DNA of 64,000 nucleotides, taken from NCBI RefSeq assembly GCF_023093535.1, contig NZ_CP095757.1, positions 2,418,001 through 2,482,000 of the forward strand, given 5' to 3'. The position numbers and the translations under genes are program-made. The notes under the pieces were generated by a model, which ran no database searches, was not told the DNA's origin, and worked only from the letters and a program-made list of their open reading frames with translations. The stretch is from Halovivax limisalsi (GTDB lineage: Archaea > Halobacteriota > Halobacteria > Halobacteriales > Natrialbaceae). Numbering within the stretch: the stretch's first letter is position 1; the number at the start of each line of letters is the position of its first letter. Of this stretch, positions 40,264-47,081 are shown in pieces.

Positions 40264-40402
40264 TGTATCGTCGATTTTTCGCCGGCCGTTGAAATACATT
40301 TCCTTTGCCATCGCCGCAGCCGTGCCCACCGCGTCGACGATCATTGTCAGCGCGTATCAATCTTCGGGAGGGTTAAGTGGGGGGACGCCGACGGATCGGT
40401 CA

Positions 40403-41854
40403 ATGAGTGTGGGGGCTACCATCTCGTCTGCTTCGGAGTACGCTATTCTCGGGTGCGGAAGCGTGGGGTACGCCGTCGCGGAGGAGTTGGTCGAGCAGGG
40501 CAAGGACGTCCGGATCGTCGACCGCGACGAGAACCGGGTGGAATCGCTTCGCGATCAGGACATGGACGCACGCGTCGCCGACATCTCGAGCTCGGCGGTC
40601 GTCGAACACGTCGAGGACTGCGACGTGGTGTTGATCCTGGCTTCGGACGTCGAGGCGAATGTCGCCGCCGTCGAACACGTTCGATCCGCCGGCACAGGTT
40701 CGTTCGTCATCGCGCGTGCGAGCGACCCCGTTTCAGGCGACGAACTCTCCGATCGAGGCGCCGACGTCGTCATCAACCCGTCGGCGGTGATCGCCGACTC
40801 GGCGCTCCGCGCGCTCGAATCCGGCGAACTCGCACACAACGCCGAAACGCTGGCGCGGATCATCGAGGGGACCGAGGACCGCCTCGCGATCGTCACGAAG
40901 GACAACCCGGACCCCGATTCGATCGCCAGCGCTGCGGCCATGCAGGCCATCGCCGAGCACCTGGGGGTCGAGTCCGATATCGTCTACCTCGGCGACATCG
41001 GTCACCAGGAGAACCGGGCGTTCGTCAACCTGCTCGGAATCGAACTCACCCTCTGGGAGGACCCGGAGGGGACCGACGCATACGACACCCTCATCTTCGT
41101 CGATCACACCAGCTCGCCCGCGCTCGATCGGCCGGCCGACGCCATCATCGATCACCGGGAGACGGACCTCGAGGCGGATCCGGAGTTCCTCGACGTCAGA
41201 CCCAGCATGTCCTCGACGTCGACCATCATGACGAAGTACATCCAGGAGTTCGACCTCAACGTCTCAGAGGAGGTCGCGACGGCGCTGCTCTACGGCATCC
41301 GGGCCGAGACGCTCGACTTCAAACGCGACACCACGCCAGCGGACCTGACCGCGGCCGCCTACCTCTATCCGTTCGCCAATCACGACACGCTCGAACAGGT
41401 CGAGTCGCCCTCCATGTCGCCCGAGACGCTCGACGTCCTCGCGGAGGCCATCGCCAACCGCGACGTGCAGGGCAGCCACCTCGTCTCGAACGCCGGCTTC
41501 ATCCGGGATCGCGAGGCGCTCACCCAGGCGGCGAACCACCTGCTCAACCTCGAGGGCGTGACCACGACGGCCGTCTTCGGCATCGCCGACGAGACCATCT
41601 TCCTCGCCGCGCGCTCGAAGGACATCCGAATGAACATCGGGCGCGTGCTGGACGACGCCTACGGCGAGATCGGCGAGGTGGCCGGCCACTCGACCCAGTC
41701 GACGGCGGAGATTCCGCTCGGCATCTTCACCGGCATCCAGATCTCCGACGACACGCGCGAGACGCTGCTCGAACTGACCGAAGAAGCCGTGACCCGGACC
41801 CTCTTCGACGCGATGGGCGTCGAGGGAAGTAGCGAGAGTTCGAACGGCAACTGA
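40403..41854 (+). CDS. TrkA_N-DHH/DHHA1 fusion phosphoesterase
   Basis: A 483-residue protein. Residues 10-130 are a TrkA_N/RCK Rossmann domain (YAILGCGSVGYAVAEELVE, RIVDRDENRVESL). From about 155 a DHH phosphoesterase domain starts, with LAIVTKDNPDPDSIASAAAM (DPDS), FVDHTSS and AIIDHRETD. A DHHA1 substrate-binding region ends with GIFTGIQISDD. Relatives hydrolyse linear or cyclic dinucleotides (pApA, c-di-AMP) or short oligonucleotides. Joining a nucleotide-sensing RCK domain suggests ligand-controlled signalling-nucleotide breakdown; this is inference. ATG at 40403 is chosen over the upstream frame from 40289, which is leader sequence. Divergent from tRNA-Lys. Confidence 0.9.
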   Translation: MSVGATISSASEYAILGCGSVGYAVAEELVEQGKDVRIVDRDENRVESLRDQDMDARVADISSSAVVEHVEDCDVVLILASDVEANVAAVEHVRSAGTGSFVIARASDPVSGDELSDRGADVVINPSAVIADSALRALESGELAHNAETLARIIEGTEDRLAIVTKDNPDPDSIASAAAMQAIAEHLGVESDIVYLGDIGHQENRAFVNLLGIELTLWEDPEGTDAYDTLIFVDHTSSPALDRPADAIIDHRETDLEADPEFLDVRPSMSSTSTIMTKYIQEFDLNVSEEVATALLYGIRAETLDFKRDTTPADLTAAAYLYPFANHDTLEQVESPSMSPETLDVLAEAIANRDVQGSHLVSNAGFIRDREALTQAANHLLNLEGVTTTAVFGIADETIFLAARSKDIRMNIGRVLDDAYGEIGEVAGHSTQSTAEIPLGIFTGIQISDDTRETLLELTEEAVTRTLFDAMGVEGSSESSNGN

Positions 41855-41912: not shown

Positions 41913-42203
41913 TCAGGCCACGACCTCTTCTTCCTCGTCGGGTTCGCGAACCCGCTCGACGACGTCGGCGACGAGGATGACGTCGCCGACCGCGCGGACC
42001 CACCGATAGGGGACGATGATGCCGAGGCCCTGCCGCGATTCCTCCTCGAACAGTTCGCCGCTCAGCGTCCCGACGGCCAATCCCGTCACCGTCTGGGTGT
42101 CGAGGTCGAGTTTGAGGTCCTCGACCTCGCCGACGTAGACGCCGTTGTTCGTATATACCTCCCGACCCACGAGCGCCGTAATCTCCTGCGGTGTCTCGTC
42201 CAT
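41913..42203 (-). CDS. PRC-barrel domain protein
   Basis: A 96-residue single-domain PRC-barrel protein. The pattern EITALVGREVYTNNGVYVGEVEDLKLDLDTQTVTGLAV, then GIIVPYRWVRAVGDVILV, is canonical. Stand-alone archaeal PRC proteins are abundant and several are linked to cell division (CdpB-type) or RNA processing; the exact member here is not identifiable by eye. It ends in an acidic tail (REPDEEEEVVA). It converges on the DHH gene, 58 nt apart. Confidence 0.88.
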   Translation of the reverse strand: MDETPQEITALVGREVYTNNGVYVGEVEDLKLDLDTQTVTGLAVGTLSGELFEEESRQGLGIIVPYRWVRAVGDVILVADVVERVREPDEEEEVVA

Positions 42204-42374: not shown

Positions 42375-45272
42375 TCAGCGGCCGACGCTCGCCGCCGCGA
42401 CGATGACGGTTCCGACCACCATCACCGCGATACCGAACCCGGCGGGACCGATCGACGGCAGCACCGCACCGCCGACGACCGTCGCGCCCGCGACCAGGCT
42501 CGCGACACCGCCGACGGTGCCAATCCGGGCCAGGCTGCTCCGGTCGCCGGCCTCGGGGCCCCTGCCGTCGGCCGAGCCGGCGCCTGTGGAGTCCAGCTCG
42601 TCGACTCGGCGTCCGAGTTCGTGGACCCGCTGATCGAGATCGGCGATCCGTTCGGGCGGTACGTCGGTCTCGCCGCCGGAGGTCGATTCCAGCGCCGAAA
42701 CGCGAGATTCGATGGCTTCCAGGTCGGATTCGTCTGCGGCGGTTGCCGCCTCGACCGTCTCGCGAAGTTCCGCCCGGTCGACGGTTTCGTCGAGCTCGCC
42801 TTCGAGCGACTCGAGCCCGTTTTCGAGGGCCGCAGTCGTTCCTTCGATCGATTCGAGTCGGTCTTCGAGCTCGGCGGTGGTCCGGTCGAGCGATTCGAGA
42901 GGCTCGATCGTCGCACTGACCGACTCCAGCTCGGCCGACAGCGACGACTCGACGCGCCCTACCCGTTCCTCGACGGCATCCGTGCTCGCGATTTCGTCGC
43001 CGTCGCCGACGACATCCGCGGCTGTCAGGCGCTCCTCCGCCGCGAGCGTGGACTGACGGGATTCGACGGCGTCGAGCCGGTCGATCACCTCCGACCGCCA
43101 GGCTGCCAGGTCGTCATACGAGGAGCGAAGCGTCGCGATCGATTCGGTCAGGGATTCGTCGTCGGACGACTCGGCCGGGCCGACGACGCGCTCGAGTTCG
43201 GCGATCGACTCGCGGAGCGCGTTCACGTCGTCCTCGTCCGGTCGGTCGGACTCGGACAGTCGCTCGTCGACGGCCTCGAGATCGGACTCGATACGCTCGA
43301 CGGCGGTACGAAGGTCGTCGATCGAGGATTCCAGCTCGTCGACGGCCGCCTCGTCCGCGCCGTCGTCCGCTCGTTCCTCGATGGTCGATTCGAGATTCTC
43401 GACGACCGACTCGATATCGCCGAGGGTCGATTCGACGTCGCCGACCTCCGACTCGAGATCGTCGACGTCGCCTTCGAGCGTCCCGAGGTCCGATTCGACC
43501 GTCTCGACGGTCGACTCGACGCGTGCGACGTCGTCCGACAGTTCGGCGTCAATCGATTCGACAGAGTCCTCGATGGACTCGATAGCGGCGGCGCGGTCGG
43601 CCGCCTCCGACTCGATCGCGGCGTCGAGCGTCGCCAGTCGCTCCTCGAGGTCGTCCGGGAGGGCGGCCAGCTCGATGTCTACGCGCGCGAGGTCCTCTCT
43701 GATCGAGTCGACCGACTCCCCGAGGTCCGACGCGAGCGTCGACTCGACGTCGTCGAGGTCGGCTTCGAGGTCGGCCACGGCGGCCTCGAGCGCTCGCTCC
43801 TGCTCGGAAACGGCGGCTTCGATGCGGTCGACGTCCGATTCGTGGGTCTCCGAGAGTGTCTCGAGTCGGTCGAACAGATCGGACTCGACCGACTCGATCG
43901 CGTCGCCCAGGTCGTCGTGCTCGGATTCGTGCGCTGTCAGCGTCTCCTCGATGCGATCGATCGTCGCGGCCGTCGACTCCACCGAGGACGAGACGGTTTC
44001 CAGGTCCGATTCGAGTGCGTCGAGGGCCGACCGGTCGGCGGCCGTCGATTCGAGTTCGTCGAGCGCGTCCGCGAGGGCCGTGACGCGGTCGTCGAGCTCG
44101 TCGAGTTCGTCGTCGCGCGTGCCGAGTCGATCGAACAGCTGCTCGATCGCGCCGTCGGCCACCGCGTCGGTCGTCTCCGCCGTTCCGACGGACTCCTCGA
44201 ACGTGAGCTGTCCCGTCGATTCGTCGTCCGACTCGGTCGCCGACGCGTCGGTCGCTTCGCTTCTCGTGTGGGCGGACCAGGTGACGGATTCGAACGCGTC
44301 GACGCCCTCCTGTGCCGAGACCAGTGCGCCGCGAACGGCGCTCTCGGCGGGCTCGTCCGCCCGGCGGATCCCCCGGATCGAGAAGGGGAGCGACGCCGCG
44401 TCGAAACGACCTCCGAGGAGGTACTCGAACCCCTCGACGGCCCACGGCCCGGCGACCGCGACGGGGACGGCGATCCCCCGCTCGATCTCCTCCGCGTCTG
44501 CCTCGACCCGGATCGCCTCGACGAGCTCGGCGGTCAGGTCGTCGAAGGCGGCCGCGATCGCACGTGCGATATCGTCTCCCGGCGCGTCCGGATCGAGAGC
44601 AAAATTTTCGAGGCGCGATTCGATCTGGTCGACGGCGTGTCCGGTGGCGCCGGCGGACCGTTCGACGATCCACCGTTTGCCCTTCGCGATCGAGAACGCC
44701 AGCACCGGGACGCCGTAGTAGACGAGGGCGACGCTCGTCAGGTCGCGATCGACGTTGATCCCGAGTCCGGTGACGTTCTCGTCGCGAAGCTGGTCGGCGA
44801 CGACCGCGTAGCCGGTGCTTACGGGTGTCGCGTCGAATCCCATCGAGGCGATGGTCTCGTCGACGACGTCGCGATGGTGCGCGGTCGGCCGGTCGGCGTC
44901 GACGATCGTCCCCGGCGTGGTGTAACAGAGGCGATTGCCCATGCCCTGGGCCAGCACCGCGTCGAGGAGCGTCTCGAGCGCCGCTTCGGCGAACGGCTCG
45001 TCGACCAGCACGCCGTCGACGAAGAGTTCGGTCACCCTCGAATCGGACGCCGCCGCGATTCGGGCCGCCCCCTCGCCCACCGCGTACGTGCCCGCAGTCG
45101 TCTCGACGGTCAGTACGTCGTCCAGTGCGACGTCACCGTCGGCTCCTGTGCTCTCGGGTTCGTCCCCGGTGAGCCGATAGATGACGGGTCGTTCCACCTC
45201 GATAACCGCCCCATCGAGTCCGTCGCGTGCCACCCGCGTCGCATCGGACCCGAAATCCAGACCGTTGGCCAT
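42375..45272 (-). CDS. Actin-like ATPase-fold protein with long coiled coil and membrane anchor
   Basis: A 965-residue protein of three parts. Residues 1-330 look like an actin/MreB/Hsp70-type fold: GLDFGSDATRVARDG at 4-18 as phosphate-1 loop, GLGINVDRDLTSVALVYYG at 169-187 as phosphate-2, and PVAVAGPWAVEGFEYLLGGRF at 270-290 as the adenosine motif. Residues ~375-890 are heptad-like, Glu/Asp/Ser/Leu-rich coiled coil (repeated variations of ESDLxxxExxVxxLES). The last ~53 residues contain two hydrophobic segments (GGVASLVAGATVVGGAVL, GFGIAVMVVGTVIVAAASVG), a tail membrane anchor. The combination suggests a cytoskeletal or scaffold element tethered to the membrane; function is unknown. Confidence 0.75.
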   Translation of the reverse strand: MANGLDFGSDATRVARDGLDGAVIEVERPVIYRLTGDEPESTGADGDVALDDVLTVETTAGTYAVGEGAARIAAASDSRVTELFVDGVLVDEPFAEAALETLLDAVLAQGMGNRLCYTTPGTIVDADRPTAHHRDVVDETIASMGFDATPVSTGYAVVADQLRDENVTGLGINVDRDLTSVALVYYGVPVLAFSIAKGKRWIVERSAGATGHAVDQIESRLENFALDPDAPGDDIARAIAAAFDDLTAELVEAIRVEADAEEIERGIAVPVAVAGPWAVEGFEYLLGGRFDAASLPFSIRGIRRADEPAESAVRGALVSAQEGVDAFESVTWSAHTRSEATDASATESDDESTGQLTFEESVGTAETTDAVADGAIEQLFDRLGTRDDELDELDDRVTALADALDELESTAADRSALDALESDLETVSSSVESTAATIDRIEETLTAHESEHDDLGDAIESVESDLFDRLETLSETHESDVDRIEAAVSEQERALEAAVADLEADLDDVESTLASDLGESVDSIREDLARVDIELAALPDDLEERLATLDAAIESEAADRAAAIESIEDSVESIDAELSDDVARVESTVETVESDLGTLEGDVDDLESEVGDVESTLGDIESVVENLESTIEERADDGADEAAVDELESSIDDLRTAVERIESDLEAVDERLSESDRPDEDDVNALRESIAELERVVGPAESSDDESLTESIATLRSSYDDLAAWRSEVIDRLDAVESRQSTLAAEERLTAADVVGDGDEIASTDAVEERVGRVESSLSAELESVSATIEPLESLDRTTAELEDRLESIEGTTAALENGLESLEGELDETVDRAELRETVEAATAADESDLEAIESRVSALESTSGGETDVPPERIADLDQRVHELGRRVDELDSTGAGSADGRGPEAGDRSSLARIGTVGGVASLVAGATVVGGAVLPSIGPAGFGIAVMVVGTVIVAAASVGR

Positions 45273-45489
45273 GTCGGTCGAAGGAAACGACAGTTAATCT
45301 AGCTTCGCCCTCGAATACCAAATGTGAAAATCGGCGGGGACGCGATCCGTAAGACCCCCGACCTCACTGTCAGTTCAGATATTCGTTCGACCCTCGACGG
45401 CCGTCCGTCGATCGCGAATACCGACCGGAACGTGGTGGTTCGACGAACCTACGACGGACGACGGTCGAGATGCGACGGCCGACGGCGAA

Positions 45490-45538
45490 ATTCGATATCG
45501 AATCTCACGGCGAGCGTCGAACCTCATCGTTATAATAG
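45490..45538 (+). promoter_or_regulatory. pckA promoter and upstream palindrome
   Basis: GTTATAATAG (45529-45538) is centred 27-28 nt before ATG 45561, predicting a leaderless mRNA. The 14-bp perfect palindrome ATTCGATATCGAAT at 45490-45503 lies 26 nt upstream of the TATA box, a typical activator position. It does not match the TACT-N-GAGTA motif known for TrmB, so another regulator is implied. The 45273-45489 stretch holds no gene. Confidence 0.55.
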
Positions 45539-45560
45539 GGGGACGAGTGATGTGAACCAC

Positions 45561-47081
45561 ATGTCCGAAACCGGGACCGAACCCCCGTCGTCGGCTCGGC
45601 GGTTCCCCGATCCCACACAGTCCGGCAATATTCAGTATAATCCGACACTGAAGGAGCTCCGATCGCTCGCGCGCGACGACGAGCGCACGACCGAGTACGG
45701 GTCGCCCGCCTACGTCAGCGAGTATCGATCGCGCTGTGCCGACCGGACGGCAAACGCCGTCGATCACGACTTCGAGGAACGGGACTGGGCGCTCGTGCGG
45801 ACGGGTCTCGACGCGGTATCGGACCGGGAAATGCTCTGCGTGGACCGACTCGTCGGCCGCCACCCCGACGCGACCTTTTGCTGTCGCCTCTACGTGCCAA
45901 TCGAGTACGCGCGCATCGCGCTGACCTGGGCGAAGCTGTTCGAACCGTCGGACGGCCGGGAGCCCGATTTCGAGACCGTTCAGGTGCCCGACCACGACGA
46001 GACGGCGATCCGGATCCTCCCCGACGAGGGGACGACGGTCGTCCTCGGCAGCGACTACACGGGCGAGGCGAAGAAATCGTTCCTCCGCCTGTTCATGTAC
46101 CGCACCAAGCAGGCCGGCGGGCTCGGGCTCCACGCCGGGAGCAAGCGCCTGACAGTTCGCGACGGCGGCCAGTCCGACGACGACCTTCGCACCGTCGGGC
46201 AACTCTTCCTCGGCCTCTCGGCGACCGGCAAGTCGACGCTCACCTCGCACGGCTGCTGGCTCACCGAGCCGGAGTCGGCGACCATGCTGCAAGACGACGT
46301 CTGCGCGTTGCTGCCGGACGGCTCCGTCGCGGGCAGCGAGGGCCAGGGACTGTACATCAAGACGATCGGACTGACGGCCTCGGAACAGCCGGCGCTCTAC
46401 GAGGCGGCGACGGCCGAGTCGGCCGTCCTCGAGAACGTCGCCGTCGACGAGGACGGCACGGTCGACTTCCACGACGATAGCTACACGTCGAACGGGCGCG
46501 CCGTCATCCAGCGCGACGAACTCGAGAGCGCGGCCGACGAGATCGACCTCGAGACGGTCGATCAGATCTTCTTCATCACGCGTAACCCGCTCATGCCGCC
46601 GGTCGCGAAGCTCGAAGGTCCGCAGGCCGCCGTCGCGTTCATGCTCGGCGAATCCATCGAGACGAGCGCCGGCGATCCATCGCGCGCGGGCGAATCGATC
46701 CGCGTCGTCGGGACGAACCCCTTCATCGTCGGCTCCGATGGCCGGGAGGGCAACCGCTTTTACGACCTCGTCCGGGACCTCGACGTCGACTGTTACGTGA
46801 TGAACACGGGCTACGTCGGCGCCGAGTCCATGGATGTCGGCGTCGAGGAGTCGGTCACGATCCTCACCGAGATCGCCAGGGGCGCCGTGGAGTGGACCCA
46901 CGACGAGCGCCTGGGGATGACGATCCCGAGCGACGTACCCGGCATCGACGTCGAGGAGTTCTACGTGCCGGATCACGTCTCGGACTTCGAGGACGCGATC
47001 GCCTCGCTCCGAGAGGAGCGGCGGGCGTACCTCGCGGAGTTCCCGGAACTGCGCGAGGAAATCGTCGACGCCGTCTACTGA
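45561..47081 (+). CDS. pckA: Phosphoenolpyruvate carboxykinase (ATP)
   Basis: The gluconeogenic enzyme converting oxaloacetate plus ATP to PEP. The 506 residues contain the P-loop LFLGLSATGKSTLTSHG, LQDDVCALLPDG (metal Asp) and YIKTIGLTASEQPALYEAA. GYVGAE and VEESVTILTEIARGAVEW complete the ATP-dependent PCK family features. ATG at 45561 is supported by the TATA box spacing; the frame continues 79 codons upstream without family similarity. Paired with pgk in this window, it serves gluconeogenesis. Confidence 0.95.
   Translation: MSETGTEPPSSARRFPDPTQSGNIQYNPTLKELRSLARDDERTTEYGSPAYVSEYRSRCADRTANAVDHDFEERDWALVRTGLDAVSDREMLCVDRLVGRHPDATFCCRLYVPIEYARIALTWAKLFEPSDGREPDFETVQVPDHDETAIRILPDEGTTVVLGSDYTGEAKKSFLRLFMYRTKQAGGLGLHAGSKRLTVRDGGQSDDDLRTVGQLFLGLSATGKSTLTSHGCWLTEPESATMLQDDVCALLPDGSVAGSEGQGLYIKTIGLTASEQPALYEAATAESAVLENVAVDEDGTVDFHDDSYTSNGRAVIQRDELESAADEIDLETVDQIFFITRNPLMPPVAKLEGPQAAVAFMLGESIETSAGDPSRAGESIRVVGTNPFIVGSDGREGNRFYDLVRDLDVDCYVMNTGYVGAESMDVGVEESVTILTEIARGAVEWTHDERLGMTIPSDVPGIDVEEFYVPDHVSDFEDAIASLREERRAYLAEFPELREEIVDAVY

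What the first reader, a model, noticed from the sequence alone, without database searches (positions are those of the whole stretch)
42375..45272. Actin-like N-terminus, ~500-residue coiled coil and tail membrane anchor in one polypeptide
Residues 1-330 carry recognisable phosphate-1, phosphate-2 and adenosine-type motifs of the actin/MreB superfamily, followed by a very long heptad-rich region and two terminal hydrophobic segments. Such an architecture could be a membrane-tethered filament, a spacer, or a force-transmitting scaffold. Haloarchaeal actin homologues (volactin) are known for cell shape, but a fusion with SMC-like coiled coil and membrane anchor is different.
Basis: partly seen in the sequence, partly recalled or inferred. 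Interest (0 to 1): 0.75.

Follow-up and report, generated by a model that had tools for sequence, protein, structure and literature searches.

The report
Membrane-tailed volactin paralogue with degraded pocket
Many salt-loving archaea of the Natrialbaceae carry, beside their normal actin-like filament protein volactin, a second, fast-evolving copy that keeps the actin fold but has lost most of the ATP pocket and ends in a very long coiled coil and a conserved membrane hairpin, so it looks more like a tether or cap for filaments than an ATP-driven filament.

Summary
Real, with two corrections. The gene is one 965-codon ORF on the minus strand (45272 to 42375). Residues 1-320 match Pfam Volactin (E 5e-96); their AlphaFold model (pLDDT 93) has the actin fold (MamK Z 26.7, MreB about 24). 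A heptad-periodic coil covers about 357-906; two C-terminal hydrophobic helices follow. It is not unique: 77 of 111 sampled genomes of its family (Natrialbaceae) carry it beside an ordinary 350-aa volactin, and it occurs in two other families of the order. It separates from canonical volactin by one fully supported branch. Head and tail are conserved while coil length varies several-fold.

The catalytic Glu, invariant in canonical volactin, is absent from all 46 long forms (Gln in two); the phosphate-2, GGD and adenosine glycines are mostly gone. Control: E. coli MreB keeps 81% of canonical pocket residues against 22% elsewhere; the long form keeps 37% of both. Yet the domain is under purifying selection (dN/dS 0.16-0.28).

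Best explanation: a nucleotide-crippled, membrane-anchored pseudo-volactin that tethers or caps volactin filaments. Binding to volactin is inferred, not shown. New variant of a known family.

The parts
42375..45272 (-). CDS of the long volactin paralogue, 965 aa
   Evidence: start Met conserved in 41 of 41 orthologues
44304..45272 (-). residues 1-323, volactin/actin-fold domain
   Evidence: Pfam PF25216 4.8e-96; AF2 pLDDT 93.3; MamK Z 26.7, MreB about 24
45246..45257 (-). phosphate-1 site, residues 6-9 DFGS (canonical DVGT); Asp kept in 44 of 46, Thr/Ser in 21 of 46
44814..44816 (-). residue T153, at the position of the catalytic Glu (E140 of Caulobacter MreB); Glu in 54 of 54 canonical, never in the long form
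   Evidence: role of the Glu from PMC4051119
44736..44756 (-). phosphate-2 loop, residues 173-179 NVDRDLT (canonical SFGAGMT, MreB DIGGGTT); GxG lost, last Thr kept
44673..44681 (-). residues 198-200 GKR in place of GGD
44442..44453 (-). adenosine site, residues 274-277 AGPW in place of TGGT
44205..44303 (-). residues 324-356, acidic Ser/Thr-rich linker
   Evidence: sequence
42555..44204 (-). residues 357-906, coiled-coil region, about 526 periodic residues (roughly 78 nm if fully extended)
42462..42509 (-). residues 922-937, Gly-rich hydrophobic helix 1 (clade consensus AGGGGAGxVAGG)
42381..42446 (-). residues 943-964, hydrophobic helix 2, followed by the C-terminal Arg
41913..42203 (-). PRC-barrel protein downstream on the same strand; at this place in the four loci of the window's genus that were compared, not in the other 37 loci; possible partner, unproven
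   Evidence: PF05239 2.8e-12

Best explanation
The protein is a derived paralogue of volactin. Shown: the volactin domain keeps the actin fold but most nucleotide-pocket residues are lost; it is followed by an acidic linker, a coiled coil and a C-terminal pair of hydrophobic helices. Inferred: the hairpin sits in the cytoplasmic membrane with both ends inside; the coil dimerises or oligomerises and holds the volactin-like heads tens of nanometres out in the cytoplasm; the heads bind, without an ATP cycle of their own, to canonical volactin, at a filament end (cap or anchor) or along it, and so link volactin cables to the membrane.
For: Fold. Family membership and separation from canonical volactin by one branch with 100% SH-aLRT. 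Pocket loss with control: of six diagnostic positions 41 of 46 long forms keep 0-2 and none more than 3, while 52 of 54 canonical ones keep all six; MreB keeps 81% of canonical pocket residues against 22% elsewhere, methanogen volactin 85% against 57%, long form 37% against 37%. Still under purifying selection: dN/dS 0.16-0.28 in the head, 0.34-0.62 in the coil, 0.10-0.56 in the hairpin. Spacer behaviour: total length 575-1295 aa, periodic coil 144-841 residues, with head and tail conserved. Tail charges fit a hairpin with both ends inside: no K/R in the loop in 40 of 41, K/R in the last five residues in 33 of 41. All 77 long-form genomes of the family sample have at least a second volactin match, of the canonical type wherever it is listed, and so do the five in f7 and f10. 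Volactin filaments in Haloferax touch the membrane by their tips and are dynamic (PMC10869688).
Against: No physical or genetic link to volactin was shown. 110 of 111 genomes of the family have volactin whether or not the long form is there, so co-occurrence says little. In Haloferax volcanii volactin is described as the only identified actin homologue (PMC7617734), and there its filament tips reach the membrane, so this protein cannot be the general anchor. The two genes are about 0.33 Mb apart. Helix 1 of the tail is borderline for a membrane span (16 residues modelled). Loss of nucleotide binding is predicted from sequence only; the phosphate-1 Asp, the last phosphate-2 Thr and one Gly of the adenosine motif remain.
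Confidence: 0.42

Rival explanations
1. Self-assembling membrane scaffold: the heads pack with each other without nucleotide and the coils add lateral contacts, giving a static membrane-linked cytoskeletal layer independent of canonical volactin.
For: Head conserved as an actin fold; dN/dS shows the head is constrained; coil-rich proteins are known to form filaments in prokaryotes (discussed in PMC10869688).
Against: The head evolves fast (median pairwise identity 48% against 94% for canonical volactin in the same family), unusual for a surface that must stack on itself; coil length varies several-fold.
Confidence: 0.2
2. Adaptor for a different partner (an FtsA- or RodZ-like role for FtsZ, CetZ or a PRC-barrel division protein): the pseudo-volactin head is a protein-binding module on a membrane stalk.
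For: 18 long-specific conserved replacements, e.g. S160D, E161Q, A187G, S300R, may mark a new conserved surface; PRC-barrel gene directly downstream on the same strand in the window's genus; PRC-barrel proteins CdpB1/CdpB2 act in haloarchaeal division (PMC12186497).
Against: The PRC-barrel neighbour is missing at the other 37 loci compared; the other neighbours are metabolic or housekeeping and not shared by all.
Confidence: 0.25
3. A working ATP-dependent membrane-anchored actin filament.
For: Actin fold; phosphate-1 Asp in 44 of 46, last phosphate-2 Thr/Ser in 46 of 46, first adenosine Gly in 46 of 46; Gln at the catalytic position in two, the residue that eukaryotic actin uses (general knowledge).
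Against: Catalytic Glu absent from all 46; GxG, GGD and GG motifs broken in most; no excess conservation of the pocket.
Confidence: 0.08
4. Decaying duplicate without function.
For: Fast evolution; missing from 34 of 111 family genomes.
Against: Uninterrupted frames of 575-1295 aa in 46 proteins, conserved tail motif, dN/dS well below 1 in all three parts.
Confidence: 0.03

Closest known systems
Volactin (VolA, HVO_2015; Pfam PF25216)
   Same: The head is a family member over its full length (322 bits); same fold
   Different: Canonical volactin is a single domain of mostly 340-400 aa with an intact pocket; this one has a coil and a membrane tail, about 32% identity in the head and a degraded pocket
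MamK and MreB
   Same: Closest solved folds
   Different: They bind and hydrolyse nucleotide; they are single actin-fold proteins without this coil and hairpin (general knowledge)
Salactin (VNG0153C)
   Same: Haloarchaeal actin homologue
   Different: Has the characteristic nucleotide motifs and a disordered charged N-terminal tail, acts in DNA partition; the paper mentions no coil or transmembrane part (PMC10746226)
FtsA and RodZ (functional comparison, general knowledge)
   Same: Membrane-linked proteins that connect a cytoskeletal filament to the membrane
   Different: FtsA uses an amphipathic helix and has another subdomain layout; RodZ has no actin fold
Magnetosome network of coiled-coil and actin-like proteins (PMC12748827, title and abstract only)
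   Same: Actin-like and coiled-coil proteins working together
   Different: There they are a network of several proteins; here both are in one chain

Membership tests
Volactin family (PF25216) | Profile match over the whole domain above the curated cut-off | tested here: met
   322 bits against cut-off 35, profile positions 1-321
Volactin family (PF25216) | Orthologue of canonical volactin (same clade) | tested here: not met
   Long forms and canonical volactins are separated by one branch, 100% SH-aLRT; the genome has both
Actin/ASKHA fold | Two-lobed actin fold | tested here: met
   AF2 pLDDT 93.3; MamK Z 26.7, rmsd 3.1 over 287 residues; actin Z about 24
Functional actin ATPase | Catalytic Glu/Gln, phosphate-2 GxG, adenosine GG | tested here: not met
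   Glu/Gln in 2 of 46; second Gly of GxG in 6 of 46; second Gly of GG in 1 of 46; none of these in the window's protein
Functional actin ATPase | Nucleotide binding, hydrolysis, polymerisation | not testable with these tools
   Needs protein
SMC / Rad50 | Match above cut-off that includes the ATPase head and hinge | tested here: not met
   SMC 58-60 bits against cut-offs 567 and 729, in the coil region only
Membrane tail anchor or hairpin | One or two hydrophobic helices at the C-terminus, conserved in the clade | tested here: met
   hairpin against single span is not settled, as helix 1 is borderline
Salactin | Closer to salactin than to volactin | not tested
   No salactin sequence was compared

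The most novel reading that the evidence does not exclude
A membrane-anchored, nucleotide-dead actin paralogue that caps or tethers the ends of an archaeal actin filament through a coiled-coil spacer: a filament-anchoring protein that evolved from the filament subunit itself.
Probability: 0.35. Interest if true: 0.75.

Novelty: new variant of a known kind. Interest (0 to 1): 0.55.

Why it matters
How volactin cables reach the membrane is open: published imaging shows them touching it by their tips (PMC10869688). A conserved paralogue with the same fold, a broken pocket, a spacer and a membrane tail is a directly testable candidate for a tether or regulator in Natrialbaceae, and would be a case of a filament subunit turned into an accessory protein. 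Only seven papers of the open library name volactin; the four in which passages were read do not mention such a paralogue in those passages, and the other three were not opened, so novelty is provisional.

Tried and rejected
Genome neighbourhood as a clue: PEPCK/CutA/L11/L1 synteny upstream in many genomes and transporter, cupin or HAD genes nearby, but no shared functional partner. Viral origin: no relative in viral contigs with one pattern, a weak test. The first genome-contig scan, with the window's own head, found nothing, probably because the patterns were too specific; a second with close relatives found 29 loci with organism names. Sequence search of solved structures gave only a chance-level hit (mS62, E 0.026). 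The MreB_Mbl profile in the own genome found one other match with a 680-aa frame, taken from its length to be DnaK; not tested. Lobe II keeps more canonical residues than lobe I; considered as a sign of one kept filament interface, but not diagnostic. A literature search for actin-like domains fused to coils returned nothing.

Full report
What is there. The ORF at 42375-45272 is on the minus strand, 965 aa. Pfam Volactin covers residues 1-320. The AlphaFold2 model from 46 aligned heads has pLDDT 93.3 and pTM 0.91; Foldseek gives MreB and MamK first, VIA-align gives MamK Z 26.7, BeeR 25.5, MreB and actin about 24. The coil is heptad-periodic far above shuffles (z 18.8), from about 357 to 906. 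The tail has two hydrophobic stretches with the clade consensus AGGGGAGxVAGG...AVVLGxVLL, modelled as two helices with modest overall confidence.

Who has it. The own genome has this gene and an ordinary 360-aa volactin. Of 111 sampled genomes of the family, 77 have the long form (counted from the rows) and 110 have a volactin match. Five genomes in two other families of the order have it too, with coil and tail. In the phylum sample, volactin outside the class was found only with frames of 326-371 aa, apart from one fragmented copy. Family f1 is Natrialbaceae: loci named by organism include Natronorubrum, Natrinema, Natrialba, Halobiforma, Halovivax and Natronococcus, and two of their contig lengths equal those of numbered genomes (457,630 bases, Natronorubrum texcoconense and G008; 4,022,344 bases, Halovivax sp. 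and G404). Those named loci that hold the whole gene end in the same tail and lack the Glu (that script stopped with an error at the second-last locus, so two loci were not printed).

Relation to volactin. In a tree of 78 heads, canonical volactins form one side of a branch with full support, so one origin of the long form is consistent with the data; the quick method and the long branches call for caution. Within the family, long forms are 48% identical to each other (median), canonical ones 94%, and 32% between the two.

Pocket. Aligned with E. coli MreB taken from its genome record (alignment), the sites read, in the order MreB / canonical / window: phosphate 1 DLGT / DVGT / DFGS; catalytic Glu E / E / T; phosphate 2 DIGGGTT / SFGAGMT / NVDRDLT; GGD / GGD / GKR; adenosine TGGG / TGGT / AGPW. 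The catalytic role of this Glu in MreB and ParM is from PMC4051119. Canonical volactin itself has Ser for the phosphate-2 Asp. Across 46 long forms the Glu is never present and Gln is in two. The control shows that the pocket has lost the extra conservation that it has in MreB and in methanogen volactins. This is sequence evidence for a crippled pocket, not proof of no binding.

Selection. Between close pairs dN/dS is 0.16-0.28 in the head, 0.34-0.62 in linker plus coil and 0.10-0.56 in the 48-residue hairpin, so the protein is used.

Mechanism. Shown: fold, pocket loss, coil, hydrophobic tail, constraint, distribution. Inferred: membrane insertion, oligomerisation by the coil, and binding to volactin. 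The published behaviour of volactin filaments (tip contact with the membrane, dynamic; PMC10869688) makes the tether idea attractive; the report that volactin is the only identified actin homologue in Haloferax volcanii (PMC7617734) limits it to a lineage-specific role.

Literature. Seven papers in the library name volactin. Passages were read from four of them (PMC10869688, PMC7617734, PMC12186497, PMC12050087); three were seen only in search lists (PMC13286277, PMC12995906, PMC10570808). Subscription journals and supplements were not searched, so novelty is provisional.

Noticed in passing
window 41913-42203 (-) and 40289-41854 (+): PRC-barrel protein next to a TrkA-N/DHH protein, beside the finding only in the window's genus among the loci compared; PRC-barrel proteins act in haloarchaeal division, orthology to CdpB1 not tested.
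   Followed up: partly
window 45324-47081 (+): ATP-type PEP carboxykinase-like protein (PF01293), divergent to the finding and found upstream in about half of the loci.
   Followed up: partly
L137, L141, L149, L138, L142, L139, L143: Three genomes of family f4 have two or three ordinary volactin-like genes.
   Followed up: no
L186, L190: Two Natrialba species have Gln at the catalytic position of the long form, the residue that eukaryotic actin uses there.
   Followed up: no
L002 and L156-L165: Canonical volactin, also in methanogens, has Ser in place of the phosphate-2 Asp of MreB.
   Followed up: no
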